A program made the position numbers and the translations under genes. A stretch of 64,000 nucleotides of DNA from Elusimicrobiota bacterium (GTDB lineage: Bacteria > Elusimicrobiota > Elusimicrobia > Elusimicrobiales > Elusimicrobiaceae). Below the pieces are notes generated by a model, which did no database searches, was not told the origin of the DNA, and was given only the letters and a program-made list of their open reading frames with translations. Numbering within the stretch: the first letter of the stretch is position 1; the number at the start of each line of letters is the position of its first letter. The DNA is taken from contig JAQXJI010000010.1 in NCBI GenBank assembly GCA_029008615.1, positions 1-64,000 on the forward strand, written 5' to 3'. Positions 1,808-54,065 of this stretch are shown here, in pieces.

Positions 1808-2803
1808 TTAAAATAATGAACCGATATAAGCACTCAATATCATTTTGCCCAATCCCATCATTGAATTTGCAAAACACGCACCGCTTGAAAAAGCGCCATT
1901 CGCCTCGCAGTTTTCATTTTTATCTTCATCGTCTTTCTTCTTTTTTAAATCTTCCAATTTATTGTCTAATCCTGAAAGTTCGTCACTGTTGCCGGCGCGC
2001 TCCAATTTATCTCTTAAGTCAGCTTCATCAACATTAAGAGCGTCGGAACTTTTTTCAAGATCACTTTCAAGCACATCTTTACCAACTTCGGTAGCGCCTT
2101 TTTGGAAAGCATCAACCGCATTTGCAGCCGCAGACTCCATATCTTTTGCATTTGCCGCAGCCGCACTTGCCATAGCCGCATGCTGAAAACCCATTCCTTT
2201 TCCGTTCTTTACCTGATTTATCAATGCCGCCTGATTTGGCTGCATTTTGGAGCCGCCGCCCGTTGCAACGCCTTTATTGCCTGAGCCCCAAACCGTACCT
2301 CGCGATCCGCCGCCACCGCCGGAAGTCGTCGCCATAGAACCGCTGCTTAAAGTGCCGGAAGGCATTGTGGGGGCTTGCTTCTTGGGCGTTTTAGTTGCAG
2401 GCCTGATTGAACGACTGCGCTTTGCGGCCTGCTCTTCCCGAGCGGCTTCATATTCTTTATCCGGCGCAGCGGGAACGCCGTTTAAAGCGTCAGATTCTTG
2501 GCGTTCTTCTTTCTGCTCTTTTGAGAACAAACCGTTTATTAAACTGTTTTTGGCTATATCATTATATTTATTTGAAGCCAATAAATACGCCTCGGCCGAA
2601 TCATCGCTGAAAGGCATATTTCCCAAATCAAAAGCTTGTTTGCGGTAAGCCTCTTGAGAATCATTCTTTTTACCCGCCCCTTTAACCGAAGCCGCTATTG
2701 ATACAGCAAAAACCAATACCATTATACACGCGGCCCAAGTATAAGCCTGGGTTTTGCCGTCCCCTCGTTTTTCGCCTTTTGCATTCCTTATGATTATAGA
2801 CAT
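1808..2803 (-). CDS. Tad-locus membrane protein, shorter paralogue of an undescribed pair
   Basis: The product is 331 aa, starting at an ATG with an AAGAGG ribosome site. One transmembrane helix lies at about residues 22-41. The following 60 residues match the upstream 453-aa protein: both carry the words MPFS, DIAK, LIN-x-LF and a PD-x-EY segment in the same order. A Ser/Gly/Thr-rich linker comes next, then an Ala-rich helix region (AFQ), a Lys/Asp/Glu-rich probable coiled coil, and a C-terminal Cys pair around an NG-x-F word, followed by a short hydrophobic tail. Its promoter and leader are also copied from the paralogue. No known family recognised. A structural or anchoring role in the pilus machine is inferred only from location. 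Confidence 0.8.
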   Translation of the reverse strand: MSIIIRNAKGEKRGDGKTQAYTWAACIMVLVFAVSIAASVKGAGKKNDSQEAYRKQAFDLGNMPFSDDSAEAYLLASNKYNDIAKNSLINGLFSKEQKEERQESDALNGVPAAPDKEYEAAREEQAAKRSRSIRPATKTPKKQAPTMPSGTLSSGSMATTSGGGGGSRGTVWGSGNKGVATGGGSKMQPNQAALINQVKNGKGMGFQHAAMASAAAANAKDMESAAANAVDAFQKGATEVGKDVLESDLEKSSDALNVDEADLRDKLERAGNSDELSGLDNKLEDLKKKKDDEDKNENCEANGAFSSGACFANSMMGLGKMILSAYIGSLF

Positions 2804-2870
2804 ATTTTCCTCTTAAAAATTAACAAGCTTAAATTTTGTCTTCCAAATTATATATATAATAAAACCGGCC

Positions 2871-2925
2871 CCTGCTGACCGATATCCCATTACCGCCGGG
2901 AAATCCTCAAACACGGAGCTAAATT
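2871..2925 (-). promoter_or_regulatory. Conserved 5' leader element, copy 1
   Basis: These 55 bases lie in the leader of the 331-aa gene and match bases 4388-4442 in the leader of the 453-aa gene with only two differences, although the surrounding bases have diverged. Read on the minus strand, GCUCC near the start can pair with GGGGC just past the end. In the other copy the partner is GGAGC, so the change keeps pairing. CCGU can alternatively pair with AUGG. Each of these helices uses the same CC, so they exclude each other. This is compatible with a regulatory RNA, but I recognise no riboswitch class. Confidence 0.55.
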
Positions 2926-2951
2926 TACGGCACACTTTAGTACCTACTTAA

Positions 2952-2980
2952 AGTGTACCAACAAATTTATAAATTGTCAA
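2952..2980 (-). promoter_or_regulatory. Sigma-70 type promoter of the 331-aa gene
   Basis: On the minus strand TTGACA (2975-2980) and TACACT (2952-2957) are separated by 17 bases. The -35 box and spacer lie in a 22-base stretch (2960-2981) that is identical to the one at 4474-4495. The promoter overlaps the stop end of the 453-aa gene, so the leader would be about 140 bases. Confidence 0.75.
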
Positions 2981-4328
2981 TGGGACGAAGCTGGAATAAA
3001 TTATTGAGATTTTGGTTTCTTAACTCCTTTGATAACGCATCATCATCTCTTCTCATTTTTTCCATATTTTTTTGAGTTTGTATTGCATTAAATTCCGATT
3101 TAAAAGAATCTGAACCGATAATGTCACCCACACTTGCATTCGGTTTAGCATTCATCGTTTCTAACGTAGCTCGATAAAAATTAAGTTCACGCTGTTGAGC
3201 AGGCGTTAAATTATCTTTTTTAGATAAGGCCTCTATCTGAGAATTATAATTTTCTTTCATTAAATTTCTTTGTTGAAGTTCATCAGCGGATAATTCTCCC
3301 TTCCCTTTATTGCTCAACAATGAAGTTAATGCTTGTTTACCTAAATCCAATGCCACATTAAACAAATCATTCATCATACAACTAGTGTCAAATTTACCAT
3401 TCATCATACTACCATCGCATTTGTGTTCTTTCTTTTCTTTGTCTTTATTATCCGCGTCTTTCTTGGCTTTATCCAAGCCATCATCCAAATTGCTGGCTGC
3501 ACGGGCGAGTTTATCTTTATCAAGTTCGCCCATCATTTTGTTTATATCAAGGCCTTCGGCGTTTTTTTCCAATTCGCTGTTTAAATCGGCTTCCAAATCC
3601 CCGCCGTTTTGAAAAGCGTCCGCGGCAAGGGCGTGAGCATCTTCCAAGTTGGAAGCATTGGCTGCCGCGCGGCTCTTTTCATAAGCGGCCATAAAACCGC
3701 CCCTGTTGTTAATATTCTTAACATCTTTGGCAAGCTGCCCGCTTAAAGAGCCGGAAGCCGCCGCAGAAGCCGATGTTTTAGAGTTCTTTTTATCATCGGC
3801 GCGCCAAATCGTTGTACTGACACCGCTGCTTGCACTGCCTACTTTTACCCCGCCGGAAGAAGACAATGCGCCTTTGGAAGTTCTCTGTGCGACTGCCGCT
3901 TTTGCCGCGGCTTTACTGCGGTAGTATTTTTCCTTTGCGGTGCGGACTTTTTCTTTTGCTTTAGCGGCCTCGGCATATTCCGCATCCGGCGGCTCCGGCA
4001 GGCCGTTTGCCGCGTCTTCCGCCTTACGGGCTTCTTTATCCTCTTCGGTAAATAAAGCATTGATTAAATCGTTTTTAGCTATATCGCCGTATCTGACGCT
4101 GGAAAGGAGTTCAGCTTCGGCTTCTTCGTTGGAAAAAGGCATATCCGCCAAATCTTTAAAATCGGAATAGCTGTACGCCGAATCCATAGGATCGGGCTCT
4201 TTGCCGCCACCCATAAAAGCCGTAGCTACAATAGCAAGCCCGAAAACCGCAACCGCACCGTAGGCGAGCCATGCACTTACCGGGCTTTTTTTGCTTCCGC
4301 CGTTATTGCTTTTTAATACAACCGCCAT
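2967..4328 (-). CDS. Tad-locus membrane protein, longer paralogue of an undescribed pair
   Basis: The product is 453 aa, starting at an ATG with an AGAGGG site 7 bases upstream. One transmembrane helix lies at about residues 22-40. The next region (MPFS, DIAK, LIN-x-LF, PD-x-EY) is shared with the neighbouring 331-aa protein. An Ala/Lys-rich helical stretch follows, then an Ala-rich AFQ segment, a Lys/Asp-rich coiled-coil-like region, and a conserved Cys pair (CDG and TSC) around residues 317-330. After that it has about 110 residues, rich in Gln/Asn/Lys, that the shorter paralogue lacks. It has its own promoter and leader after a terminator. Function unknown; the Cys pair suggests an extracytoplasmic disulfide. 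Confidence 0.82.
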   Translation of the reverse strand: MAVVLKSNNGGSKKSPVSAWLAYGAVAVFGLAIVATAFMGGGKEPDPMDSAYSYSDFKDLADMPFSNEEAEAELLSSVRYGDIAKNDLINALFTEEDKEARKAEDAANGLPEPPDAEYAEAAKAKEKVRTAKEKYYRSKAAAKAAVAQRTSKGALSSSGGVKVGSASSGVSTTIWRADDKKNSKTSASAAASGSLSGQLAKDVKNINNRGGFMAAYEKSRAAANASNLEDAHALAADAFQNGGDLEADLNSELEKNAEGLDINKMMGELDKDKLARAASNLDDGLDKAKKDADNKDKEKKEHKCDGSMMNGKFDTSCMMNDLFNVALDLGKQALTSLLSNKGKGELSADELQQRNLMKENYNSQIEALSKKDNLTPAQQRELNFYRATLETMNAKPNASVGDIIGSDSFKSEFNAIQTQKNMEKMRRDDDALSKELRNQNLNNLFQLRPIDNL

Positions 4329-4387
4329 ATTGATACCCTCTTAAATAAATTTTTAGAACCGTTTAATTATATGCAAAAATTACGGCT

Positions 4388-4442
4388 CCTGCTGACCGAT
4401 ATCCCATTACCGCCGGGAAACCCTCAAACATGGAGCTAAATT
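4388..4442 (-). promoter_or_regulatory. Conserved 5' leader element, copy 2
   Basis: This is the 55-base counterpart of 2871-2925, with two mismatches, in the leader of the 453-aa gene. On the minus strand it is preceded by a perfect small hairpin (AGGCGT, loop ATG, ACGCCT) just after the promoter. GCUCC can pair with GGAGC, and CCAU alternatively with AUGG. The conservation is stronger than expected for a plain untranslated leader. Confidence 0.55.
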
Positions 4443-4465
4443 CAAGGCGTCATACGCCTACTGAA

Positions 4466-4494
4466 AGTTTACAAACAAATTTATAAATTGTCAA
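4466..4494 (-). promoter_or_regulatory. Sigma-70 type promoter of the 453-aa gene
   Basis: On the minus strand TTGACA (4489-4494), a 17-base spacer and TAAACT (4466-4471). It lies just downstream of a terminator, so it starts a new transcript. The -35 box and spacer are copied in the promoter at 2952-2980. Confidence 0.75.
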
Positions 4495-4502
4495 TATATC
4501 AA

Positions 4503-4553
4503 AAGACCGAACGGCATTTTTTATTTGGCAAGAAAATGCCGCCCGGCTCTTTT
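4503..4553 (-). terminator. Rho-independent terminator after the TadE-like gene
   Basis: On the minus strand a long stem has GGCATTTT paired with AAAATGCC, extended outward by CCGGGC/GTTCGG-type pairs including G-T, and followed by TCTTTTG. It lies 14 bases after the stop at 4567 and directly before the next promoter. Confidence 0.7.
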
Positions 4554-4566
4554 AAAATCACGGATA

Positions 4567-16520: not shown

Positions 16521-18740
16521 TTAAGCCGCAGCCTCTTCCTTGCGGGCCGAAGTATCGGGCCGATCAAAAGTTTCCTTGGGAACGTCAATACCTTTGGCCT
16601 TAAATTCAGGGAAGAAAGTCGGCAGTTCGCCTGTCGCGGCGAAAACGCCTTCTACTTTACCTTCTTTATTTACGCCCGTCTGTATATAGCGGAACAAATC
16701 TTTGCTTTGTATTGCGTTATCTTTCTGCCCGCAAATTTCCGTTACGTAAGTAACCTTCCTGCTTCCGTCGGAGAACCTTGAAAGCTGAACAATCATATTC
16801 ACGGCGGAGGAAATCATTTCCCTGATAGCCCAAATCGGCAAATCCGCGCTGGCCATCATACACATAGCCTCAAGACGGGTTAAACCGTCGCGCGGCGTAT
16901 TGGCGTGAATAGTGGCCAAAGAACCTTCGTGGCCGGTGTTCATAGCCTGTAACATATCCAAAGCTTCCGCACCGCGGCACTCACCGACTACGATTCTGTC
17001 CGGCCTCATACGCAGACAGTTTTTAACAAGGTCTTTAATGGTTATTTCGCCTTTGCCTTCAATGTTGGCCGGTCTGCTTTCCAAAGAAACCCAGTGTTCC
17101 TGCTGAAGTCTTAACTCCGCAGTATCTTCCACGGTTACGATACGCTCATTTTCAGGAATATAACTGGAAAGAGCGTTTAAAAACGTTGTTTTACCGGTAC
17201 CGGTACCGCCGCAAATGATGATGTTTTTCCTAAGTTTTACGCAACATTCAAGGAAATACATCGTAGGCCTGTCAATAGTGCCGAAGCGGTAATAATCTTC
17301 CGGCCCGAACGGTTTTTGGGAGAAACGCCTTATCGTAAGCGAAGGCCCGGATACGGCCAAGGGGGCGATAATGGCGTTTACACGGGAACCGTCTTTAAGC
17401 CTCGCGTCGACCAACGGGACTGATTCGTCGATACGCCTGCCGAGCGGAGCCACAATCCTTTTAATTACTTGTACGACTTGGTCATTATTGCGGAATTTAT
17501 ATCTTGTAAGAGTAAGTTTACCTTTCTGCTCTATGAAAATTTTATCATAGGCGTTTACCATAATTTCGGTAACGGAAGGATCCCTCATCAAAGCTTCTAA
17601 AGGCCCGAGGCCCAAAATTTCGTCCAAAAGCTCGTTAATAAATCTGACTTTTTGATCCCTTGAAAGCTGAACATTGGCTTTTTTGCGCAGAACTTCGTCA
17701 ATAATTACCGAAACGCGCTTCCTGGTCTGCTCGTTTTGGCTGCCTTCTTCGCTGATAACGATACGTTCAACTTCCAAAGTTTTGATTACGTCTTTATGTA
17801 CTTGCTGTTTTAAAGAATCCCAGTAAGAAAGATCGGAATCCCCGCCGTCCACGTGATTTGGCCCTTTCGTGTTTCCGCTTAAAACAGTGGCCGCTTCCCA
17901 AATATTTTTCGAAGCTGCGACAAATTCGCTGTCCGGAACTACCGTGGACCAGTTTTTTTCGCCCGCCGGGGTATCTTCAATAACTTTTAAAATCGGTTTA
18001 AGGCCTTCCTGCACCCAAAGGGAACTGCGGTTTACCAATATTTCTATTTCTCTCTTATTGGAGGATTCAAATACGCTTTCCTCCCAAGTAAGATATACTA
18101 TCGGTTCTCGGCCTAATTTTATGAAAAACTGGTTTACTTCCTCGTGGTCTATCGCACCGGGCAAATTATACTGGTTACAGATAATTTCAATACGGTCGAT
18201 GGGAAAGTGCATTTCCTTAAAATCGGTAAACATAGCAACCGCCGTATTCAAGTGGGAACGTGTGCAGTTTGTAACCCAAAAAATCTTATCGGCGATGTCA
18301 AAAGCGAAAGATTCCATAGGAAAACTGGAATCGACATCAAGGAAAATATCAAAAGTCTGTTGGAGTCTGGAAAGCATCGGCAGCAAGATCTTGGGGGATA
18401 TTAAAGAAACCTCCTGTCTGCTGGAGCCGAGCGGCAGTACGCCTACGCCGACCTGCGTCATTGAAACCTTACCCCTTAGCAACCCTCCGGCTACGGCTAT
18501 CGCGCCGGATCCTAAAGCACGCACCAAATCGGCCACGGTAACGGGCTTTCTTATGCCCAAATAGAACCCGTGTTCCTGCCTGGCTAAAGGATCAAGCGGC
18601 ACTATAAGCACAGGCCTTTTTTGCATTTCGGCCCAAGCTATCGCCAAATTAAGCACCAACGTCGTTTTACCGACGCCTTCTTTAGGCCCTGTAAAAGCTA
18701 TTACTCTGGGTGTGCCGGATAAAGCCTGCGTATCTTCCAT
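16521..18740 (-). CDS. tadA: TadZ-TadA (CpaE-CpaF) fusion, pilus assembly ATPase
   Basis: The product is 739 aa. Residues 1-265 are a MinD/ParA-like domain of the TadZ/CpaE type, with a deviant Walker A (PKEGVGKTT at about 18-27) and LDVDSS as a Walker B-like strand. Residues 300-715 are the secretion ATPase TadA/CpaF: N-terminal helical domain, Walker A GGTGTGKT at about 508-516, Asp box (TVEDTAEL), Walker B (IVVGECRG) and His box (ATIHANTPRDG). In most Tad loci these are two genes. The fusion ties pole-localising TadZ to the motor in one chain. The 4-base gap to the secretin gene and 9-base gap to tadB show one operon. Confidence 0.93.
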   Translation of the reverse strand: MEDTQALSGTPRVIAFTGPKEGVGKTTLVLNLAIAWAEMQKRPVLIVPLDPLARQEHGFYLGIRKPVTVADLVRALGSGAIAVAGGLLRGKVSMTQVGVGVLPLGSSRQEVSLISPKILLPMLSRLQQTFDIFLDVDSSFPMESFAFDIADKIFWVTNCTRSHLNTAVAMFTDFKEMHFPIDRIEIICNQYNLPGAIDHEEVNQFFIKLGREPIVYLTWEESVFESSNKREIEILVNRSSLWVQEGLKPILKVIEDTPAGEKNWSTVVPDSEFVAASKNIWEAATVLSGNTKGPNHVDGGDSDLSYWDSLKQQVHKDVIKTLEVERIVISEEGSQNEQTRKRVSVIIDEVLRKKANVQLSRDQKVRFINELLDEILGLGPLEALMRDPSVTEIMVNAYDKIFIEQKGKLTLTRYKFRNNDQVVQVIKRIVAPLGRRIDESVPLVDARLKDGSRVNAIIAPLAVSGPSLTIRRFSQKPFGPEDYYRFGTIDRPTMYFLECCVKLRKNIIICGGTGTGKTTFLNALSSYIPENERIVTVEDTAELRLQQEHWVSLESRPANIEGKGEITIKDLVKNCLRMRPDRIVVGECRGAEALDMLQAMNTGHEGSLATIHANTPRDGLTRLEAMCMMASADLPIWAIREMISSAVNMIVQLSRFSDGSRKVTYVTEICGQKDNAIQSKDLFRYIQTGVNKEGKVEGVFAATGELPTFFPEFKAKGIDVPKETFDRPDTSARKEEAAA

Positions 18741-31140: not shown

Positions 31141-31227
31141 GGAGAGGTGGCCGAGTGGTTTAAGGCGCTTGTCTTGAAAACAAGTGTGCGGGAAACCGTA
31201 CCGTGGGTTCGAATCCCTCCCTCTCCG
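31141..31227 (+). tRNA. serT: tRNA-Ser (anticodon UGA)
   Basis: This is an 87-base type II tRNA. The acceptor stem pairs GGAGAGG with CCTCTCC, with discriminator G. The anticodon arm is CTTGT, loop CTTGAAA, ACAAG, giving TGA at 31175-31177. A long variable arm and the T loop GTTCGAATC are present. CCA is not encoded. The mobile island begins just downstream, but no copy of the tRNA 3' end was found at the island's far end. Confidence 0.97.
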
Positions 31228-31425: not shown

Positions 31426-32115
31426 ATGAATAAAGAACAAATGATGAGATATTTTTCTATTATGCGTAACCGCATAGAAGTTAATGCTTTATCTCTTGGG
31501 GCACTTGTTAATCCCCGAAATACATTTCAAGTAAAATCTTATAAAATAGATGAAAGTAGTCGAATTTTTGCAATTCCTGAAGATTTTTCAGTTCTAAAGC
31601 CTTATTTTCGGGATGTATTGGTTAATGCTGCCATTAGAAATGGAATCGAAGATTTTGAATATCTTTTATGTTGTATTTATATCTATCTTTCTCAACAGAC
31701 GCAAAAAGTAGTTTCCCAAGAAGATATTAGCAGATTTTCAAGAGAAAATTTCCACAACAAACTACTAAAAATAGACAAATTATTGGATGGAAAATTAACA
31801 CCTCATTTAGATATTTGGAAAAATATCCAATATATTCGTAATGCCATCACTCATCATGGGGGTAATATGGTAAAGGAAGATGTTGTTTTATATATCCCCA
31901 CTCCACAGTTTGACATGAGGACAACCCAGAAAAATGCACAAGATCCTATTACAAGAGAAAAACACGTTAGTCTGCAAATAGAAATCATTCCAAAATTTAT
32001 TACGAAAAAATTTAAAAAGAATGAACGGATAGAGTTCTCGGATAAGGAAATTAACGGGTTATTAGTGGGACTCTATAATTCAATTGAATGGCTCCAAAAC
32101 ATTGTAATAGTTTAA
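31426..32115 (+). CDS. HEPN-like protein, candidate RNase
   Basis: The product is 229 aa. A mostly helical N-terminal half contains IQYIRNAITHHGG at residues 135-146; Arg138-x4-His143 with Asn after the Arg is the HEPN RNase motif, and the following Gly-Gly is like RiboL-PSP-HEPN proteins. The C-terminal 80 residues are basic and unassigned. A TATAAT box at 31413-31418 stands 7 bases before the ATG, so the mRNA may be leaderless. It is the first gene of the island, convergent with the DnaB-like gene. HEPN proteins often act as toxins or antiviral RNases; that role is inferred. Confidence 0.65.
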   Translation: MNKEQMMRYFSIMRNRIEVNALSLGALVNPRNTFQVKSYKIDESSRIFAIPEDFSVLKPYFRDVLVNAAIRNGIEDFEYLLCCIYIYLSQQTQKVVSQEDISRFSRENFHNKLLKIDKLLDGKLTPHLDIWKNIQYIRNAITHHGGNMVKEDVVLYIPTPQFDMRTTQKNAQDPITREKHVSLQIEIIPKFITKKFKKNERIEFSDKEINGLLVGLYNSIEWLQNIVIV

Positions 32116-32130
32116 AAGACTTTCTGAATT

Positions 32131-32877
32131 TTATCCCATGTGCCCACTGCCTTTACCAAATGGAATTTGTAGTGTATTGGACAGATGCTCTGCCGTGTAG
32201 ACGGATAGATTAATCGTATCGCTAGCGTCCCCGTATAGGAAAATCATTTTATCTTCTTTTTGTATATCCATTGTTGGGATGTGAATATCGGACAAGGAGG
32301 GTTGGATATTGTTCTTATGTCGTTTGCATCGTATGGAAATTATAATGGCAATTTGCAGTTCGTGGGCCAATTCTCTCAGTTGTGCCAATATACGGTTTGT
32401 TTCGGTTTGAGCCCCTTTAATCAATTGGAAATAATCTATAGCCACTAATTTAAGCTTTACACCCGTTTGGGATAATTCTTTATATAGCCGGCGCGTCCGC
32501 TGACAAATTTCTTCCATGTTGATAGCGGCTGTATCATCAATATACAGTGGGGACTTCTGCAGACTATCTAATGCCGGCTGAATAAGCCGTTTGTGTTGTT
32601 CCTGGGAAAAGTAACCGTTTCTCAAAAGTTCAATTTTTACCTTACTTATTTTGGCTACTAAGCGTTCATATAGACTGTTCCTTCCCATTTCTATAGAGAA
32701 AATGGCCGTCGGAATATGCTGCGACACGGCAGTGTGTGCCACCACATTTGTCAGGAAAGCCGTTTTTCCTTGCCCGGGTTTGGAGGCTACAAAGGTCAGC
32801 TCGCCTGGTTCTAAGCCGCCAATGATAGCATCTAATGACTGGATTCCCGTAGGGATAAAATATTTATTTGTATACAT
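32131..32877 (-). CDS. DnaB-like RecA-fold ATPase lacking the DnaB N-terminal domain
   Basis: The product is 248 aa. It has only the C-terminal helicase core of DnaB: the opening TGIQSLDAIIGGLEPGELTFV, Walker A SKPGQGKTA (residues 32-40), IFSIEM, Walker B KLVAIDYFQLI (about 148-158) and ISIRCKR-type sensor. DnaB is about 450 aa with a helical N-terminal domain needed for hexamer and primase contacts, absent here. Related short forms occur in mobile elements. The ATG has AAAGGAGG upstream, and it starts 29 bases after the recombinase stop, so both are co-transcribed. It may serve element replication or a cargo function. Confidence 0.8.
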   Translation of the reverse strand: MYTNKYFIPTGIQSLDAIIGGLEPGELTFVASKPGQGKTAFLTNVVAHTAVSQHIPTAIFSIEMGRNSLYERLVAKISKVKIELLRNGYFSQEQHKRLIQPALDSLQKSPLYIDDTAAINMEEICQRTRRLYKELSQTGVKLKLVAIDYFQLIKGAQTETNRILAQLRELAHELQIAIIISIRCKRHKNNIQPSLSDIHIPTMDIQKEDKMIFLYGDASDTINLSVYTAEHLSNTLQIPFGKGSGHMG

Positions 32878-32905
32878 ATTGCCTCCTTTTTTATAGTTTA
32901 AATAA

Positions 32906-34516
32906 TCATTGCGACAGCCTTCGGTCGTTTTTTAGCTTCAGTAAATCTTTGACGCTTAAAACCTCTTTTGAAACGCCGGATAGGATATTCAAAATGGTTT
33001 TAGCGGGTAAAAAGGATATTTCTAATAGCCGGGATATATAGCTGTCAGTACAATCTTCTTGCTTTGCTAATTCTAAGATAGAAGAAGCCTGACCGGAGAA
33101 TAATTTTTCCCTCAAGGCATAACTTTGGCAAATAATTCGTACCAAGGGCACTCTGGGAGAATTGGGAGCCGGGCATTGTTCGCCTAAAATTATCTTTTTC
33201 CCTTTGCAAGCCCGTCTGATTTGGAAAGGATATTCAAAACTTTCAAGCGAATCTGCGGAGATAAGTTTAAACGAGCGTTTTTCCGCTAAAGAGAGTAAAA
33301 ATTCTCTGATTTGGGCGAGGGATACGGTCAATCTTAACGTATTGGGAAATAAATCAACTCTTGCAACGAGTAATCTTCTTGTTTCAGTAGGTAGGGATAG
33401 CTGTGGGAGTTGCTTTTTAATGTCTTGTTGTAAAGATATGTGGATGTTTGATAACAGCGGGGTTAAAAATGCCGGAGAAGTTAACAGTTCTTTTAATCGT
33501 TGGGTAACAAAATTTTCTAACTCTCCGGCGGGAACTTGTGTAATAATCCCTAGTTTTTCTCTTTCCTGCTTAATCATGGCTTGGCTGGTATAATATCGTC
33601 TTTTCTTGCTGCCGGATCCACTGGCTTTTGGGCTCATGCGGTTTCCGTTATCGTCAAACAGTTTGCCGGCTAAAAAGCTGGGGTGCGTGTCATGCCGTAC
33701 ACGATTTACCTGGTGGTCAGAAATAATTTGCTGGACGGAAGCGAAAAGCTCTGTGGTGACTAACGCTTGATGCAGGCCCGGATACCAAATCCCTTTATGC
33801 CCAACTTCCCCAATATAAACCCGGTTGGATAGGATGCGATGCAGGTTAATCTTGGTGAAGGGCTTACCCAAAGAGGTTTGAATATTATTTTCCCGGACCC
33901 AATCCAATAGTTTCCCTACGCTTTTTAATGAATGATATTGTTTGAACAAAGATTTTAATATAGCGGCTTGTTGTGGGTGGGGGATGAGTTTCTTGTCCTT
34001 GCGTTCGTAGCCAAAAGGGGGATATCCGCCCATCCACATTCCCTTCTTTTTGCTGGCGGCGTATTTGTCCCGGATGCGTTCCGCCGTTACTTCTCGTTCA
34101 AATTGTGCAAAAGATAACAGCATATTAAGCGTTAAGCGGCCCATGCTGGTTGTAGTATTAAAGTGTTGTGTAATAGACACAAAAGACGCTTGGTGGGCGT
34201 CGAGCACTTCTATAATTTTGCTGAAATCCATTAAACTGCGGGTTAAACGGTCTATTTTGTAGACGACGATAATATCAATTTTTCCCGTTTTTACATCTGA
34301 GAGTAATTGTTGCAGAGCCGGGCGTTCCAATGTGCCTCCGGAATATCCTCCGTCGTCATAAGCCGTTGGAATCAGAATCCAATTCTCCGATTTTTGGCTT
34401 TTAATATACGCTTCACAGGCCTCCCGTTGGGCTTGCAGGCTGTTAAAGTCCTGTTCTAGGCCTTCTTCGGATGATTTTCGCGTATAAATGGCGCATCGGA
34501 TAGGTTTATTTATCAT
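32906..34516 (-). CDS. Large serine recombinase (integrase/resolvase family)
   Basis: The product is 536 aa. The N-terminal resolvase domain has AIYTRKSSEEGLEQDFNSLQAQ with the nucleophile Ser15, the DDGGYSGGTLERPAL segment, and IIVVYKIDRLTRS. The Recombinase domain follows (about 165-270, GYPPFGYERKDKK) and then the zinc-beta-ribbon/coiled-coil region, where the usual Cys ligands are not evident. The C-terminal region is a helix-turn-helix-like tail. It is the enzyme expected to insert and excise the island. It overlaps the DUF2924 gene by 11 bases. Confidence 0.92.
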   Translation of the reverse strand: MINKPIRCAIYTRKSSEEGLEQDFNSLQAQREACEAYIKSQKSENWILIPTAYDDGGYSGGTLERPALQQLLSDVKTGKIDIIVVYKIDRLTRSLMDFSKIIEVLDAHQASFVSITQHFNTTTSMGRLTLNMLLSFAQFEREVTAERIRDKYAASKKKGMWMGGYPPFGYERKDKKLIPHPQQAAILKSLFKQYHSLKSVGKLLDWVRENNIQTSLGKPFTKINLHRILSNRVYIGEVGHKGIWYPGLHQALVTTELFASVQQIISDHQVNRVRHDTHPSFLAGKLFDDNGNRMSPKASGSGSKKRRYYTSQAMIKQEREKLGIITQVPAGELENFVTQRLKELLTSPAFLTPLLSNIHISLQQDIKKQLPQLSLPTETRRLLVARVDLFPNTLRLTVSLAQIREFLLSLAEKRSFKLISADSLESFEYPFQIRRACKGKKIILGEQCPAPNSPRVPLVRIICQSYALREKLFSGQASSILELAKQEDCTDSYISRLLEISFLPAKTILNILSGVSKEVLSVKDLLKLKNDRRLSQ

Positions 34517-34910
34517 TTTTTACTCCAAAGAATACTTTCCCATTCCATTGTTTGCCTGTGATTTCCCGGGCGATAGCGGATAAACTCTTATAGGTTTGGC
34601 CATTATATAAATAGCCGTTTGAAACGACTTCCACTTTATACTGAATGCCTTTATAAGAGCGCACAAAGCAAGCCCCTTCGGGAAAGGTTTTTTCTTGGGG
34701 GCGGTTTATTGTGTCTTGTTCTAGGTTTTTCTGTGCTTGGGCGAATCGTCTGAAGAAATGCTTCGGATTGATTTTATTTTCGTAGGCTTGTTTATACCAC
34801 GTTATATATCTAATCAGCAAGGATTTCCTCAAATTGGGCATCGGTTCTTTAATATACTTGGCCCAGATTTTAACCAGTTGCTCGTTTGTCAGCGTTTTGA
34901 GTTGTTGCAT
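34506..34910 (-). CDS. DUF2924 family protein
   Basis: The product is 134 aa from the ATG at 34910, which has GGGAGGG at the right distance; an upstream GTG is less likely. The C-terminal half shows the DUF2924 pattern: VRSYKGIQYKVEVV, GYLYNGQTYKSLSAIAREITGKQWNGKVFFG. The N-terminal half is helical (TNEQLVKIWAKY, FFRRFAQ). DUF2924 genes are habitually next to serine recombinases in prophage-like elements; the protein may be a DNA-binding accessory or directionality factor. It overlaps the recombinase gene and lies under a dyad-symmetric promoter. Confidence 0.88.
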   Translation of the reverse strand: MQQLKTLTNEQLVKIWAKYIKEPMPNLRKSLLIRYITWYKQAYENKINPKHFFRRFAQAQKNLEQDTINRPQEKTFPEGACFVRSYKGIQYKVEVVSNGYLYNGQTYKSLSAIAREITGKQWNGKVFFGVKNDK

Positions 34911-34915
34911 ATTCC

Positions 34916-34955
34916 CTCCCACGTATATTACCGCTTACGTGGGAGAGATAGTCAA
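34916..34955 (-). promoter_or_regulatory. Promoter and 10-bp dyad operator of the DUF2924-recombinase operon
   Basis: A perfect inverted repeat, CTCCCACGTA (34916-34925) and TACGTGGGAG (34936-34945), spaced by 10 bases, covers the control region. On the minus strand TTGACT (34950-34955) can act as -35, with TAATAT (34925-34930) 19 bases or GGTAAT 17 bases away as -10. One arm falls in the promoter spacer and the other covers the ribosome site of DUF2924, so a bound dimer would block both transcription and translation start. Confidence 0.7.
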
Positions 34956-34956
34956 G

Positions 34957-35877
34957 TTAATTCTGTTGAAGATATTTCTGCAGCATACCGTGTAGCGTAT
35001 GTTTTAGGGATAGGGGTTCCACAATGCGAATATTCGGAAGCCAAGGCATAAGCGGCAGCAAAACTTCTTCATCTTGGGAAATGGTGGTTTCGAGGGTTAT
35101 GCTGCCGTCTTTGGCTTTGGTTATGATTTTTTGCCTGGGGAAATAATCCCGTTTTTCAAAATAGGGGGCAATATCGGCCTTAATAGCCAAAACCACGCGT
35201 TTTTGGGTCTGTTCGTTAAAAAATACGCTTGTGCTTGATTTTAAGGCGTTTAACGCTGTTTTAGAGGGGGTAAATCGTTCTTGCGTATTGCGGATATCCA
35301 AAATACGGTCTAAACGCAGAGTTTTTATTTGTTTTCGGCTATTTAGGCCTAATATATACCAAAATCCATTGGAATATACTAATTTTAACGGTTCTAGGTA
35401 GTAATTTAGTTTTTTAGAAGGATCTGCCGCAAAAGTTAAATACACCGCCGTATGGGTAGTTACGGCTTGTTCCAATGCTTGGGTAATAGGGGATTTGGCG
35501 TATGGCGTGGCCGAAATTTGGAAGTAATAAGGCGCGTTTTCCAAAGGACGCATAAGCCGTTGGTTTAGATGAGAAATTACATTCTCAAATTTAGCTCCGA
35601 ACGGCTTGGCCATTTCCGCGAGTAGTACAAGAGCGGACAGTTCTTCTTTAGACAGTTGCAGTTTTTTTAAAGAAAACCCTTCCGCAAAACAATAAATTCC
35701 CGGTTTTTCTTTATAAATTGGAATGCCGGCCGCTTCCAAATTAAGAATATCCCGTTGAATTGTCCGCACCGTTACGCCGAGTCCTTGCGCCTCGCGGGGA
35801 ATATCGATGTGACCTCCGTCCAACACATTAAGCAAATAGACGGTCCGGGTTAATTTATTGAGCGTTTTCTCTTTCAT
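34957..35877 (-). CDS. WYL-domain transcriptional regulator
   Basis: The product is 306 aa. A DeoR-type winged helix-turn-helix opens the protein (residues 5-60: VTVRTIQRDILNLEAAGIPIY). A helical linker follows, then the WYL domain (about 140-205: YLEPLKLVYSNGFWYILGLNSR, LRLDRI) and a WCX C-terminal extension (about 225-300). Such proteins regulate defence islands and DNA-damage genes. No ribosome site is seen; the start lies 23 bases inside the nuclease gene, so translation is coupled to it. It may repress its own operon or the dyad operators in the island. Confidence 0.9.
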   Translation of the reverse strand: MKEKTLNKLTRTVYLLNVLDGGHIDIPREAQGLGVTVRTIQRDILNLEAAGIPIYKEKPGIYCFAEGFSLKKLQLSKEELSALVLLAEMAKPFGAKFENVISHLNQRLMRPLENAPYYFQISATPYAKSPITQALEQAVTTHTAVYLTFAADPSKKLNYYLEPLKLVYSNGFWYILGLNSRKQIKTLRLDRILDIRNTQERFTPSKTALNALKSSTSVFFNEQTQKRVVLAIKADIAPYFEKRDYFPRQKIITKAKDGSITLETTISQDEEVLLPLMPWLPNIRIVEPLSLKHTLHGMLQKYLQQN

Positions 35878-37075
35878 AGTCTTGTTGGAGTTGCTGCATT
35901 ATTTCATTAATTTGTTCAACAAGTTTGGGATATTCGTCATTTAACCATTGATCTAGATGTTTTTGAAATTGATCTTTTATTTCTTCATTGGTAGCATTCT
36001 TTAACTTTTCATATTGTAATAATTTATGGGTGTAAATTGTGGTCCACTTGTTTCCGGATTTTTTATATTTGCTGTCTTTTTGTATCCTTTCTAATAATTT
36101 CTGCTTAATGCTTTCTGTTTGTTTGTTACTATCAGTAGGGCCTACAATTAGTTTGATTTGAATTTCTTTATTATTATTGATAATTTCAAATAGGACTAAA
36201 TCAGTACAATCTTTTAACCAAGTTCCTTTTCTAACTTGTGTGCAGGTATATTGTTCCCAGGAATGGGGAGAAAAATTCAGGTAACATTTACTTTTACGAT
36301 AAATGCTTTCTTTTTCGAATTTTTCAATTAAGATAGTATTGAGTGTTGCTTGAAAGTCCATTTTATATTCGAGAATGGTTTCAATGGCTTCTTTATGTTC
36401 TTTATACAATTTTGAACACAACTCTTGTATTTCATTATCTTCCATGGTAATCTCCCGTAATATTAATTGTTGATATTGTAATAGCAAAGCGTGTACTTGC
36501 GCTGGCATTATTGGAATACTAATTAATAAGTTTTCTATTAAACGAGCGATATGTGCATATGATAAGAGAATAATCTCGTCCTCTAACTCTTGAGGCGTTA
36601 ACCCCTCCGGGGTTAAGTATATAAAGTAACGTAATTTGTTGGGAAATTGATGTTTAAGGTATTGGATATATTTAGCAAGTTGACCAGGAGCATCGGTTGT
36701 GTCAATTTTATTTTCAATGCCAATAATAAATTCTTTTCCTTTGATTAATATATCAATACGCCCTGTTTCAGCATCGCTTTCTGTTGATACTTCAATTTCA
36801 GCAGGGTTTAGGTTGGAAACATGTATCAAGGCATTGAGCTGATATTTCTCGGGTAGTTGCAACAGTAGTTCTTTAAGGGTGGCTGTACCCAACTTATGGT
36901 TTGCTTGGGGATTAAATAACCAAGCTAGCATTGTAGAATGGCGTATTTCTTGGCGATTTAAATTAAGAATTGAAAATATATTAAATTCTTGTAACTTGCT
37001 TTCTAAAATCGCTAAATTGGGATCTTTGATCAGATTGTACAGGCCGGTAAGTTGCTCTTGCTGGGGGTTGTTCAT
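35855..37075 (-). CDS. PD-(D/E)XK nuclease family protein (PDDEXK_4 type)
   Basis: The product is 406 aa from the ATG at 37075, which has AAAAGGAGG upstream. Residues 43-65 (HSTMLAWLFNPQANHKLG) are the family's opening motif. The catalytic signature follows: Asp108 in GRIDILI, then Glu121-x-Lys123 in IGIENKI, then GQLAKYIQYL. The C-terminal 200 residues are Lys/Glu/Gln-rich and helical. Such nucleases occur as stand-alone defence genes and as restriction-like effectors. The overlap with a WYL regulator gene forms a two-gene unit with a structured leader. Substrate unknown. Confidence 0.85.
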   Translation of the reverse strand: MNNPQQEQLTGLYNLIKDPNLAILESKLQEFNIFSILNLNRQEIRHSTMLAWLFNPQANHKLGTATLKELLLQLPEKYQLNALIHVSNLNPAEIEVSTESDAETGRIDILIKGKEFIIGIENKIDTTDAPGQLAKYIQYLKHQFPNKLRYFIYLTPEGLTPQELEDEIILLSYAHIARLIENLLISIPIMPAQVHALLLQYQQLILREITMEDNEIQELCSKLYKEHKEAIETILEYKMDFQATLNTILIEKFEKESIYRKSKCYLNFSPHSWEQYTCTQVRKGTWLKDCTDLVLFEIINNNKEIQIKLIVGPTDSNKQTESIKQKLLERIQKDSKYKKSGNKWTTIYTHKLLQYEKLKNATNEEIKDQFQKHLDQWLNDEYPKLVEQINEIMQQLQQDYERENAQ

Positions 37076-37173
37076 AAAAATCCTCCTTTTCAACAGTATC
37101 GCTCTATTAAGCGACAAAGGTTGGTCGTTTTTATCAAAAAGAGGGTATAAAAAAGCGACGACCGCACTTTGAG

Positions 37174-37258
37174 GGTGATCAAACGCTCAGAAATGGGTCA
37201 TCGCCGCCGTACCCGGTTGGGCACAGCAAAACCATGACCTCATCTTGGTTTGATCACC
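37174..37258 (-). promoter_or_regulatory. Nested inverted repeats upstream of the nuclease gene
   Basis: A perfect 11-base outer pair, GGTGATCAAAC (37174-37184) and GTTTGATCACC (37248-37258), encloses an inner pair GGTCAT (37196-37201) and ATGACC (37234-37239) and a central CCC/GGG. As RNA this folds into one long stepped hairpin of 85 bases. It lies about 100 bases before the nuclease ATG and after the terminator of the upstream operon. It could be a regulatory RNA or a binding site. Confidence 0.55.
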
Positions 37259-37260
37259 AC

Positions 37261-37281
37261 TTAGACGATAAATTCGTCTAA
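37261..37281. repeat. 8-bp perfect hairpin TTAGACGA/TCGTCTAA
   Basis: TTAGACGA, five-base loop, TCGTCTAA. It lies two bases from the larger nested repeat. No T tract follows on either strand, so it is more likely an operator dyad or RNA stem than a terminator. Confidence 0.5.
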
Positions 37282-37345
37282 ATCGTTGCCTTTACGGCTC
37301 CAAAACGAGTCATACAAATTTGATACTACAATTCTATTAAAACAA

Positions 37346-37378
37346 ATTCGGACAGAAACGACAAATTTCTGTCCGAAT
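37346..37378 (-). terminator. Terminator of the ParB-methyltransferase / DUF5681 operon
   Basis: A 13-base perfect stem (ATTCGGACAGAAA with TTTCTGTCCGAAT) has a 7-base loop and is followed on the minus strand by TTGTTTTAATAG. It lies 26 bases after the DUF5681 stop. Confidence 0.8.
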
Positions 37379-37403
37379 AATGAGTTTAAGGATCCCATAT
37401 TCC

Positions 37404-37724
37404 TTAAATTGGTAAAGAGGTATGGTCTGAGTCCATTTCCCGTGTTAAAAATTTCAGTACGATTTCTGAAGCTTTAATGTTGCCTCGCAAAGCGTCATGC
37501 AGCCATTTACGCGTTAGGGCTTGTTTGACGGCAATTTCGCTTTTTTGTTTTCCATCGCTCACTGTTACCATACGACCGAACTCTTCTTTCATAAGAGAAT
37601 ACATCGTCCGACTGTTTGCTGGCCGACCGTTGGGATTACCCGATTGCCCGGGTTTGAACTGAAATTCTTTTGGCGGATGTCCTGGTCCTACTTTATAAGG
37701 TCTATATTTGATACGTAATGTCAT
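37404..37724 (-). CDS. DUF5681 family phage-type small protein
   Basis: The product is 106 aa. The central FKPGQSGNPNGRP word is the DUF5681 signature, with a basic N-terminus and a helical C-terminal half (KQALTRKWLHDALRGNIKASEIVLKFL). These proteins are typically encoded beside terminases or methyltransferases of phages and may have a packaging-related role; no terminase is present here. Its ATG overlaps the methyltransferase stop (ATGA), so the two are translated together. Confidence 0.88.
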   Translation of the reverse strand: MTLRIKYRPYKVGPGHPPKEFQFKPGQSGNPNGRPANSRTMYSLMKEEFGRMVTVSDGKQKSEIAVKQALTRKWLHDALRGNIKASEIVLKFLTREMDSDHTSLPI

Positions 37725-38971
37725 GCGAGTACCTCCTCAAATTTGGCTTTTTTGCCTGTTAATTGTTCAAAGCGAAATAGAATAACGTCGCAGTAGTGTG
37801 GATCGATTTCCATCATATAGCCCTTGCGATTTGTCTTTTCACAAGCGAGCAAAGTAGATCCACTTCCCGCAAAGCAGTCAAGAACGATGTCTCCGATGTT
37901 ACTAACGTCCAAAATGGCATCGGCGATCATTCCTACGGGTTTAACGGTTGGATGAAATTTTAAGTCATTTCGGTTTACGGGATTAGAAACCCGCACTCCA
38001 GGGTAGCTCCATACATTTGTTCTGTTCCGTCCATATTTTCCCAAATCAATATGATTAATGTGGGTGGTGTTGCTATTTTTGAACAGGAAGAAAAATTCAT
38101 GTTGAGATCGATACAGCGATCCCATTCCTCCGCATTGTTTATCCCATACACAGATGTTTTTAAGAGCAGTATAAGCTTTGCCGGCGGTGGATATTTCGGA
38201 AATATGCCGCCAGTCCATGCATACAAAATGGAGCGAGCCATCTTTTGAGAATTGAATCAAATTCTTGAACGTTTGCGAGAGGAAATCGGTAAATTCTTGC
38301 GGAGTCATCTCTCCGTGAACCATGGCAAAGTCTTTGTGCTTATATTTTCCGTTTCCGCAGATATGCCCGTCCGTTTTTACATTAAAGGGGGCATCAGTAA
38401 ATACCATATCGGCCTTTTGGTTGCCCAAGAGCTCCCGGTAACTGCTAGATTCCAGCGCATTGCCGCAAAAAAGGCGGTGTTGGCCTAAACTCCATAAATC
38501 GCCCGATTTGACGCGCTTTGGGATATCAATGGGAATGTTCAAAGTTTCTTCTTTTGAAGTATTTATTTCGGACAGGAAAAGCAAATCAATATCCGGGGTG
38601 GAAAAACCCGTTAAATTGATATCCATTTCGTCCTGGCATGAGACTAGCTCTTGAAATTCCAACTTTAGGGACGCCTTATCCCAGCAGCTTTGCTCGGCTA
38701 TTCGGTTATCTGCTATCCGAAACGCTTTTAGTTCAAGCGGAGTGAGATGTTCAATTTTTACCGTGGGAACTGATTTTAAGTTTAATTTTCGGGCTGCTAA
38801 AACGCGGCCATGTCCTGCCAAAATAACATTGTTTTTATCAATCAACACGGGATTGTTGAAACCAAAGACTTTAATACTTCGTGCCAATAGTTCTATTTGT
38901 TTGGGTGAATGTATGCGCGTGTTGCGAGAATAAGCCTTAAGTTCTTCGACAGGGATATTTTCAATTTTCAT
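37721..38971 (-). CDS. ParB-domain DNA methyltransferase
   Basis: The product is 416 aa with GGAGGT before the ATG. Residues 1-95 are a ParB/Srx-like nuclease domain (VEELKAYSRNTRIHSPKQIELL, ILAGHGRVLAARKL). The rest is a beta-class amino-methyltransferase: motif IV reads TDAPFNV near residue 192 where DPPY/DPPF-type is usual, and motif I FAGSGST is near 367, followed by GYMMEIDP. It would methylate adenine or cytosine amino groups to protect element DNA or mark replication. Such fusions are common in prophages. The Ala in motif IV may alter activity. Confidence 0.9.
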   Translation of the reverse strand: MKIENIPVEELKAYSRNTRIHSPKQIELLARSIKVFGFNNPVLIDKNNVILAGHGRVLAARKLNLKSVPTVKIEHLTPLELKAFRIADNRIAEQSCWDKASLKLEFQELVSCQDEMDINLTGFSTPDIDLLFLSEINTSKEETLNIPIDIPKRVKSGDLWSLGQHRLFCGNALESSSYRELLGNQKADMVFTDAPFNVKTDGHICGNGKYKHKDFAMVHGEMTPQEFTDFLSQTFKNLIQFSKDGSLHFVCMDWRHISEISTAGKAYTALKNICVWDKQCGGMGSLYRSQHEFFFLFKNSNTTHINHIDLGKYGRNRTNVWSYPGVRVSNPVNRNDLKFHPTVKPVGMIADAILDVSNIGDIVLDCFAGSGSTLLACEKTNRKGYMMEIDPHYCDVILFRFEQLTGKKAKFEEVLA

Positions 38972-38976
38972 ATTTA

Positions 38977-39018
38977 CCTCCGTTATCGGAATATAACACA
39001 GTATAGCGATAACAGAGG
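38977..39018 (-). promoter_or_regulatory. Dyad operator and promoter of the methyltransferase operon
   Basis: CCTCCGTTATCG (38977-38988) and CGATAACAGAGG (39007-39018) are 12-base inverted repeats with one mismatch, spaced by 18 bases. On the minus strand a TATACT -10-like box lies between the arms and the downstream arm covers the ribosome site (GGAGGT). The layout equals that at 34916-34945, with a different half-site. Confidence 0.65.
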
Positions 39019-39047
39019 TATCTTACGAGGACACGAAAAGTGGAGAA

Positions 39048-39803
39048 CTATGTCCTTTTAGCTATGAAGAGATTTTTCACGAGTTTTCTAGCTCGACCGC
39101 ATCTTTTGTGAAATGCATCAGGGCTTAACTCTTGGATTGATTTTCTTAATACTTTGTCTTTTTTAGCTCTTTCGAATAAATCGGCTTCTGTCATTCGTTT
39201 AGTTTGTAAACTAAGTAAGCGGATATTTTCCCAGTTAGTTTCTATGAAATGTTTTGAAGGTAATTCTTTTAAATTGGCTTCAATATCTGCTTTCTTGGCG
39301 TGGAGAAATCCAATTAGTTCTGAAAATTTGATGTCGTGGGTAATATGGATTTCTAACCAAGGTTCCTCATGTGTAGCGTAGTAGATAGAAATCGGTTCTA
39401 TATGGTGTTCAATGGTATTGCACCATACAATAGAGAAAAGATGGGGTTTTAAAAGCGGATGGATAGAATAATATCCATGCACTTCACTGGAAATTAAATC
39501 CCATTGTACTTGTTGGGCTAATTTAAAGAGTTTTTTGGTTTTTTTATCTCTAAGTATGAAATGACAAGGTCCTGTTTCTAATCCTTCGATAGGCAAACCA
39601 TGTTTTCGACGAAAATTTCTTACAAACTGAACAAAATCTTGATTGGGAACGATTGCTCGGGCCAAAAAGATTAACTCCGACGATACTTTTCTGTAACCAG
39701 CCGGATAATTTTCTAATGCCCGCCCGCTGGTGACCACTTTATATGGCGGATGGGTATGAATATTTACTCCCGGCAAACGTTTCAATAGGAATTTAATTTG
39801 CAT
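39048..39803 (-). CDS. Unknown island protein divergent from the DUF3800 gene
   Basis: The product is 251 aa from the ATG at 39803; a GTG nine bases further upstream is possible. It has no signal peptide or membrane helix. It contains HTHPPYKVVTSGRALENYPAGYRKVSSELIFLARAIVP-like mixed segments, several His-rich words (NTIEHHIEPISIYYATHEEPW), and a basic C-terminus (KRCGRARKLVKNLF). I do not recognise a family. The intergenic space to the DUF3800 gene is 46 bases, so the two promoters must overlap and the genes may form one functional unit. Confidence 0.7.
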   Translation of the reverse strand: MQIKFLLKRLPGVNIHTHPPYKVVTSGRALENYPAGYRKVSSELIFLARAIVPNQDFVQFVRNFRRKHGLPIEGLETGPCHFILRDKKTKKLFKLAQQVQWDLISSEVHGYYSIHPLLKPHLFSIVWCNTIEHHIEPISIYYATHEEPWLEIHITHDIKFSELIGFLHAKKADIEANLKELPSKHFIETNWENIRLLSLQTKRMTEADLFERAKKDKVLRKSIQELSPDAFHKRCGRARKLVKNLFIAKRT

Positions 39804-39813
39804 AGATAGCACA

Positions 39814-39849
39814 TTGATTAATAATTTAATTTAATTATATATTAATATT
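39814..39849 (+). promoter_or_regulatory. Promoter of the DUF3800 gene, apparently leaderless
   Basis: TTGATT (39814-39819), an 18-base spacer, and TATATT (39838-39843) end 6 bases before the ATG at 39850. No ribosome site fits in that space, so the transcript probably begins at or next to the start codon. Confidence 0.6.
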
Positions 39850-41004: not shown

Positions 41005-41019
41005 GAGGAATCCCTGTTT

Positions 41020-41041
41020 CTCCCTGTTATGCAGGGAGGCA
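41020..41041 (+). repeat. 22-bp direct repeat, copy 1, with 7-bp dyad
   Basis: The sequence contains CTCCCTG, TTATG, CAGGGAG, a perfect 7-base dyad, and lies 15 bases before the ATG of the HEPN-like gene. A second copy with one mismatch lies at 42634-42655, just beyond that gene. The pair may be insertion-site repeats, or the first copy may serve as operator or leader hairpin. Confidence 0.7.
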
Positions 41042-41055
41042 TCCTGGAGGTTAGT

Positions 41056-42483: not shown

Positions 42484-42633
42484 AAAATATTAACATTTGT
42501 GTGAAATCCCTAATCTAGAATAGACAGCATCATCATTTATTTTTAAAGTTATAGTAGAAAAGAAATTATTGTTTATATTTATAGCTACGAGATAAGTTTA
42601 GAATGGGATGAGACTGGTTTACATGTAGCACTG

Positions 42634-53696: not shown

Positions 53697-54065
53697 TCAA
53701 TTAACTATCTTAAACGCAGAAAATCCGGCAAAGACCGCCGATATGCATACTATCAGCGTGCCAAGGATATAAAGCACGGCTTTTAAAGTTTGTCCGTCTT
53801 TAAGAAGCATAAGAGCGTCAAGACTAAACGCGGAAAAAGTGGTAAATCCGCCCAAAAGACCGGTAATAAGGAAATATTTAAACGGCTGAATATTTTTAAA
53901 TTCAAAACCCGCCAAAAAACCTATAAGCAAGCAGCCGAAAAAATTTACAAAAAAAGTGCCCCAAGCATTATGAAGACCCGCGCGCGAAACCATAAAAAGG
54001 CAAACGCCGTATCTTAGCGCAGCGCCGACAAATCCGCCCGCTCCCACAGCCAAAAAATTTATCAT
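53697..54065 (-). CDS. crcB: Fluoride ion channel CrcB/FluC
   Basis: The product is 122 aa, the typical size. Four hydrophobic helices with the family words GAGGFVGAALRYG at the N-terminus, GTFFVNFFGCLLIGFLAG with the pore Asn, and GLLGGFTTFSAFS with the TTFS fluoride track. It works as a dual-topology dimer that lets F- leave the cell. The ATG overlaps the GGDEF stop by 4 bases and there is no room for a fluoride riboswitch, so it depends on the long operon upstream. Confidence 0.94.
   Translation of the reverse strand: MINFLAVGAGGFVGAALRYGVCLFMVSRAGLHNAWGTFFVNFFGCLLIGFLAGFEFKNIQPFKYFLITGLLGGFTTFSAFSLDALMLLKDGQTLKAVLYILGTLIVCISAVFAGFSAFKIVN

What the first reader, a model, noticed from the sequence alone, without database searches (positions are those of the whole stretch)
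2804..4500. Duplicated promoter plus conserved leader in front of two paralogous membrane genes
Both genes share a 22-base identical -35/spacer block and, further down the leader, a 55-base block with two mismatches, while the bases between and around have drifted. The two differences keep base pairing in two mutually exclusive helices (GCUCC with GGRGC, or CCRU with AUGG). Two copies are few, but they look like a switchable RNA element or a protein-binding leader belonging to this pilus locus. I recognise no known riboswitch class.
Basis: partly seen in the sequence, partly recalled or inferred. Interest (0 to 1): 0.7.

Follow-up and report, generated by a model that had tools for sequence, protein, structure and literature searches.

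The report
Family-wide leader RNA heading pilus-adjacent operons
The two look-alike leaders belong to a previously undescribed structured RNA, found in 81 of 90 sampled Elusimicrobiaceae species (gut bacteria) and nowhere else searched, which sits just after a strong promoter and probably decides whether transcription of one envelope/pilus-adjacent operon continues.

Summary
On the minus strand both genes have a TTGACA-N17-TANACT promoter, then an imperfect hairpin and a U-run. Covariance models built from it find 89 strong copies (E <= 2.4e-10) in 81 of 341 Elusimicrobiota genomes, all in one family (81 of its 90 genomes); the next hit is E = 0.005 and is an ordinary terminator. A scan of 84,980 species finds the core only in Elusimicrobiota records and unnamed MAGs; no Rfam family matches. 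Across 70 copies 98.5% of proposed pairs hold, with 214 two-sided changes (shuffles 55); two small internal loops are nearly invariant, the apical stem changes freely but stays paired, and the U-run sits in a fixed register (U at +6/+7 in 69/69). It precedes one orphan membrane-protein gene (84 of 85 testable copies). In Elusimicrobium-type genomes, where the locus is split, the second half carries its own copy. Best reading: a promoter-proximal transcription attenuator or pause hairpin read by an unknown trans factor. The RNA family is near certain; the mechanism is inferred (about 0.45).

The parts
2952..2980 (-). sigma-70 promoter of leader A: TTGACA (2980-2975), 17 nt, TACACT (2957-2952)
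   Evidence: promoter of this type at the same place in 69 of 70 copies
2929..2944 (-). optional 5' hairpin P1 of leader A (GGUAC / GUGCC)
   Evidence: covaries within the genus; clear in about 30 of 70 copies
2868..2919 (-). core hairpin A: P2 GCUCC 2919-2915 / GGGGC 2872-2868; inner loop UGUUUGAG 2913-2906 / GGUCAGCA 2880-2873; variable P3 2905-2881
2861..2867 (-). CGG spacer and UUUU run of leader A
   Evidence: U-run at fixed register in 68 of 70 copies
1808..2803 (-). gene led by leader A: 331-aa single-TM protein, conserved domain ..FDLGNMPFSDDSAEAYLL..
4466..4494 (-). sigma-70 promoter of leader B: TTGACA (4494-4489), 17 nt, TAAACT (4471-4466)
4446..4458 (-). optional 5' hairpin P1 of leader B (GGCGU / ACGCC)
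4385..4436 (-). core hairpin B: P2 GCUCC 4436-4432 / GGAGC 4389-4385; inner loop UGUUUGAG 4430-4423 / GGUCAGCA 4397-4390; variable P3 4422-4398
4375..4384 (-). CGUAA spacer and UUUUU run of leader B
2967..4328 (-). gene led by leader B: 453-aa paralogue of the leader A protein
4501..4554 (-). strong intrinsic-terminator-like hairpin between the upstream TadE-like unit and the leader B promoter; insulates the unit
   Evidence: I12; -25.6 kcal/mol, z -5.4

Best explanation
A lineage-specific cis-acting leader RNA of Elusimicrobiaceae. A near-consensus housekeeping promoter starts a transcript whose first universal structured feature (P2 begins 15-35 nt after the -10 box) is a roughly 55-nt hairpin: P2 (NCUCY/RGRGY), two small nearly invariant internal loops (about RUGUUUGAG / GGUCANCA), a freely evolving apical stem P3, then 1-5 nt and a U-run in fixed register. 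SHOWN by comparison: the structure, the invariant loops, the register, the promoter, and the tie to one operon, including a re-attached copy where the locus is split. INFERRED: hairpin plus U-run forms a promoter-proximal attenuator or pause signal for RNA polymerase; a trans-acting factor (most likely a protein) recognising the invariant internal loops changes hairpin stability or polymerase response, and so sets read-through into an otherwise strongly promoted operon of envelope/pilus-adjacent membrane proteins. The factor and the sign of regulation are unknown.
For: 70 copies: 98.5% of cells paired against 32-54% for slid controls, 214 two-sided changes against 55 in shuffles; without any structural alignment the P3 arms pair 87-100% at positions 1-6. 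Internal-loop positions U36, U40, G41, G43, G69, G70, C72, C75 are invariant in 67 distinct cores; A42-U71 changes together to G42-C71. U at +6 and +7 after P2 in 69/69, U almost never at +1, and -1/+1 never extend the stem except once, while distances to promoter (15-35) and to AUG (27-131 nt) vary: the fixed unit is hairpin + U-run. Hairpin mean -18.2 kcal/mol. Promoter score >=10/12 in 69/70 against 2.6% in shuffles. The unit is insulated: terminator-like hairpin before leader B, another right after the long last gene in the window's genus and in Avelusimicrobium. 84 of 85 testable gene copies carry the RNA. In three Elusimicrobium-type genomes the relocated long gene has its own promoter and RNA.
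Against: The U-run starts 1-5 nt after the stem and the first two bases are almost never U, unlike ordinary terminators found nearby (U at +1/+2 64-73%, only 11 examples), so as a terminator it would be weak. No conserved antiterminator partner was found; in some genomes only about 10 nt lie between the expected start site and the hairpin. No binding protein identified: no RfaH/LoaP-type NusG paralogue, no CAT_RBD or ANTAR protein. No transcript data. One gene copy (G009) lacks the RNA.
Confidence: 0.45

Rival explanations
1. put/EAR-like antiterminator RNA: the folded leader binds elongating RNA polymerase directly and makes it processive across the long operon, without a dedicated protein.
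For: Like phage HK022 put RNAs (about 70 nt, two stem-loops, putL just downstream of its promoter, one copy per operon; PMC9378689), this RNA is promoter-proximal, has conserved non-canonical inner loops, has a second stem-loop (P1) in about half the copies, and heads operons of up to about 10 kb; the split operon has a second copy.
Against: R2 finds no match in the HK022 early region (best E 2.1); P1 is absent in many copies; no strong internal terminators in the operon that would need suppressing; the fixed-register U-run is not needed for this.
Confidence: 0.17
2. Metabolite riboswitch whose aptamer is the internal-loop hairpin itself; c-di-GMP is the obvious ligand to try for a pilus-adjacent operon.
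For: Conserved loop nucleotides inside covarying stems at a single operon are typical of orphan riboswitch candidates; GGDEF proteins occur in 89 of 90 family genomes.
Against: No Rfam class matches; restricted to one bacterial family and one operon; no separate expression platform; the c-di-AMP synthase domain is absent from all 90 genomes, so c-di-AMP is an unlikely ligand.
Confidence: 0.13
3. 5' mRNA stability or processing element (protective hairpin or RNase target) with no switch.
For: 5'-proximal stable hairpins (core, and P1 in about half) close to the start site.
Against: Protection does not explain invariant internal loops or the fixed-register U-run.
Confidence: 0.12
4. Translational switch: the P2 5' arm (CUCY, anti-SD-like) alternately pairs with the Shine-Dalgarno sequence.
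For: CUCY is complementary to purine-rich SDs; in Avelusimicrobium the hairpin lies about 20 nt from the SD.
Against: Own-SD pairing is no better than with other species' SDs (-4.54 against -4.76 kcal/mol); hairpin-AUG distance varies 27-131 nt.
Confidence: 0.07
5. Recent duplication without function, or a translated leader peptide (RUG UUU GAG ...).
For: The two window copies are 86% identical; the frame is open in the window copies.
Against: Family-wide conservation with covariation; P3 length takes all residues mod 3 (27/26/17) and frames close at any point.
Confidence: 0.01

Closest known systems
Intrinsic-terminator attenuators (leader hairpin followed by U-run)
   Same: promoter-proximal hairpin (mean -18 kcal/mol) followed by a conserved U-run upstream of the first gene
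   Different: U-run offset by 1-5 non-U bases; conserved internal loops inside the hairpin; no detectable antiterminator fold
HK022 put RNA
   Same: about 70-nt structured RNA close to a promoter, one copy per operon, conserved non-canonical inner loops
   Different: no sequence/structure match; second stem-loop not universal; cellular; fixed U-run
LoaP / RfaH leader elements (dfn hairpin, ops)
   Same: short hairpin near the start of a long operon; both window leaders contain an ops-like GGCGGTAATGG (resemblance recalled)
   Different: that string is only the variable P3 loop; genome has a single NusG
c-di-GMP-I and -II riboswitches
   Same: often head envelope/pilus genes (general knowledge)
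   Different: no Rfam match; architecture unrelated
RAT hairpins of BglG/LicT antiterminators and ANTAR targets
   Same: small hairpins with internal loops or conserved loop bases that bind a regulator protein
   Different: sequence differs (recalled, not tested); the regulator domains are absent from the genome

Membership tests
Any described RNA family (Rfam 15) | score at or above a family's gathering cut-off | tested here: not met
   (none but a tRNA in the window); permissive scans give only noise (STnc130 E=3; AaHKsRNA22 E=0.11 at 19.2 of 39.8 bits)
Structured cis-regulatory leader RNA | covarying base pairs | tested here: met
Structured cis-regulatory leader RNA | located in the 5' leader, same strand, of a consistent gene set | tested here: met
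Structured cis-regulatory leader RNA | changes expression | not testable with these tools
   needs a reporter or transcript data
Intrinsic-terminator attenuator | stable hairpin followed by U-run | tested here: met
   run of at least 4 U beginning 1-5 nt after P2 in 68/70; U at +6/+7 in 69/69
Intrinsic-terminator attenuator | U-run directly follows the stem | tested here: not met
   U at +1/+2 in 1%/6% against 64-73% in ordinary terminators here
Intrinsic-terminator attenuator | mutually exclusive antiterminator fold | tested here: inconclusive
   CCRU/AUGG only 9/67; upstream leader often too short
SD-sequestering translational switch | alternative pairing with the SD kept by coevolution | tested here: not met
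LoaP/RfaH antitermination | specialised NusG paralogue in the genome | tested here: not met
   one NusG only
HK022 put RNA | matches the same sequence/structure model | tested here: not met
HK022 put RNA | two stem-loops | tested here: inconclusive
   second stem-loop (P1) in about 30 of 70 copies
HK022 put RNA | binds RNA polymerase beta' zinc-binding domain | not testable with these tools
   biochemistry needed
c-di-GMP riboswitch | Rfam class I/II match | tested here: not met
c-di-GMP riboswitch | organism has GGDEF proteins | tested here: met
   89/90 genomes
c-di-GMP riboswitch | binds c-di-GMP | not testable with these tools
   needs probing
RAT (BglG/LicT) or ANTAR antitermination | CAT_RBD or ANTAR protein in the genome | tested here: not met

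The most novel reading that the evidence does not exclude
A self-contained RNA device in a cellular genome whose single hairpin is both sensor and actuator: it acts directly on the elongating RNA polymerase (put-like) or senses a ligand within the terminator/pause hairpin itself, with no separate aptamer or antiterminator fold.
Probability: 0.2. Interest if true: 0.8.

Novelty: new variant of a known kind. Interest (0 to 1): 0.58.

Why it matters
It is a well-supported structured RNA family with no Rfam match and no mention found in the literature searched, in a phylum with very few cultured members. One RNA-bearing genome (G096, a single 1,643,562-bp contig) is probably that of the cultured species Elusimicrobium minutum, which would make it directly testable. 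Its tie to a single operon, and the second copy where the locus is split, point to dedicated control of an uncharacterised envelope system next to a Tad-type pilus.

Tried and rejected
ops/RfaH-like GGCGGTAATGG: lies in the variable P3 loop and there is one NusG. Leader peptide RUG UUU GAG: P3 length takes all residues mod 3. CCRU/AUGG alternative helix: 9/67. Anti-SD switching: no coevolution. Alternative terminator AUCGG/CCGRU over leader A: seen by eye only in some copies of the window's genus. Pairing of the U-run with the AU-rich linker: only some copies by eye. Viral contigs: 14 loose pattern hits, none confirmed by the model. L081 (tRNA) and G008:C38 (plain terminator) are false positives. 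Structure prediction of the downstream protein was poor (pLDDT 64), so no fold search was run.

Full report
OBSERVATION. Two paralogous genes (1808-2803 and 2967-4328) are each preceded by TTGACA-N17-TANACT and a leader with a 55-base near-identical block. The proteins have no Pfam match above its cut-off and no PDB relative and are 38% identical in their N-terminal parts.

COPIES ELSEWHERE. A DNA search of the genus gave five further copies diverged enough to test pairing. Built on those seven, an 18-pair structure is 96.8% paired against 40-55% when slid. The model R1 found copies in 75 of 341 Elusimicrobiota genomes; a refined model R2 from 70 copies found 89 matches with E <= 2.4e-10 in 81 genomes, then one at E = 0.005, which is an ordinary terminator after a gene, and nothing outside one family. 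The family holds 90 sampled genomes. An exact-pattern scan of 84,980 species returned 44 stretches, all in records titled Elusimicrobiota/Elusimicrobiaceae (for example Candidatus Avelusimicrobium, UBA1436) or unnamed MAGs; 29 of these were run against R1 and all 29 match. A viral scan gave no confirmed copy. Rfam has no match.

ANATOMY. From 70 copies: promoter TTGACA (67/70), spacer 17 (67/70), TATACT in 57/70; P2 begins 15-35 nt after the -10 box; in about 30 of 70 copies a 5' hairpin P1 lies in between. The core is P2 (NCUCY/RGRGY, always paired), a single bulged base, UG/CA, a small loop (U38 U39 / N74), UGA/UCA with a rare double change (A42-U71 to G42-C71), a G/GG loop, then P3, which varies in length (15-39 nt with its loop) and sequence but keeps pairing. 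After P2 come 1-5 mostly non-U bases and a U-run; U is present at +6 and +7 in all 69 copies with a full tail. Promoter-hairpin and hairpin-AUG distances vary, hairpin-U-run register does not. This argues that the working unit is hairpin plus U-run.

GENES. The downstream gene family occurs in 83 of 90 family genomes, 88 copies. By comparing the tables, 84 of those carry the RNA upstream on the same contig; three (G003, G059, G060) end or break at contig ends (for G003 and G059 inferred from the RNA lying at a contig end), and one (G009) lacks the RNA. Three further RNA copies, in genus g3 (G095, G096, G097), precede a different gene of about 1200-1350 aa. In the window's genus and in Avelusimicrobium that long gene lies downstream in the same locus as the RNA and is followed at once by a strong terminator-like hairpin. 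So where the locus is split, each half has its own promoter and RNA. Within one such genome (G096) the two copies differ widely in P3 but keep the core, which excludes recent duplication as the reason for similarity. G096 is one contig of 1,643,562 bases; I believe from memory that it is Elusimicrobium minutum Pei191, not checked with a tool.

MECHANISM. Shown: a conserved, promoter-proximal, structured leader attached to one regulon. Inferred: action on transcription elongation. Reasons: fixed hairpin/U-run register; an insulated unit with a near-consensus housekeeping promoter and a terminator-like hairpin just upstream of leader B, leaving the leader as an obvious control point; no coevolution between the P2 5' arm and the Shine-Dalgarno; variable distance to AUG. 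Against: the U-run is offset from the stem compared with ordinary terminators in these genomes, no antiterminator fold is seen, and no factor is known. Hence confidence 0.45 for a regulated attenuator/pause, with a put-like polymerase-binding element (comparison from PMC9378689; no model match), a riboswitch, a stability element and translational control as rivals. c-di-AMP is unlikely because its synthase domain is absent from the family; c-di-GMP stays possible.

KNOWN OR NEW. No family was matched and the literature searched holds nothing on an RNA motif of this kind in Elusimicrobia. It is a new RNA family of a known general kind (cis-regulatory leader RNA), with an unusual design: invariant internal loops inside a terminator-like hairpin.

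Noticed in passing
window 16521-18740 (-): One 739-aa protein joins a ParA/CbiA-type ATPase domain (residues 14-231) to a T2SSE secretion ATPase domain (377-656): apparently a TadZ-TadA fusion.
   Followed up: no
window 4501-4554 (-): Strong terminator-like hairpin directly upstream of the leader B promoter, separating the RNA-led unit from the TadE-like genes.
   Followed up: partly
L168 (G009:C20), gene start near 374 (-): The only copy of the downstream gene with intact upstream DNA but no recognisable RNA; its leader has a different sequence.
   Followed up: partly
L082 (G095:C7), about 1426-2150: About 720 bases with a foreign-looking ORF separate the RNA from its usual gene, as if something inserted between leader and gene.
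   Followed up: no
L162:10583-14203, L172:2219-5926, L160:6295-10356: Fast-evolving orphan protein of 1206-1353 aa with a conserved N-terminus (KDSFTFSDK...) and a weak OmpA-like C-terminal match in one member; last gene of the RNA-led operon.
   Followed up: partly
window 54062-55564 (-): GGDEF-domain protein with motif GGDEI, one of two in the genome; the domain is present in nearly all family members.
   Followed up: no
window about 32100-42500: Serine-recombinase-like ORF and ParB-like ORF near a tRNA gene (31141-31227): possibly an integrated mobile element (names from sequence appearance only).
   Followed up: no
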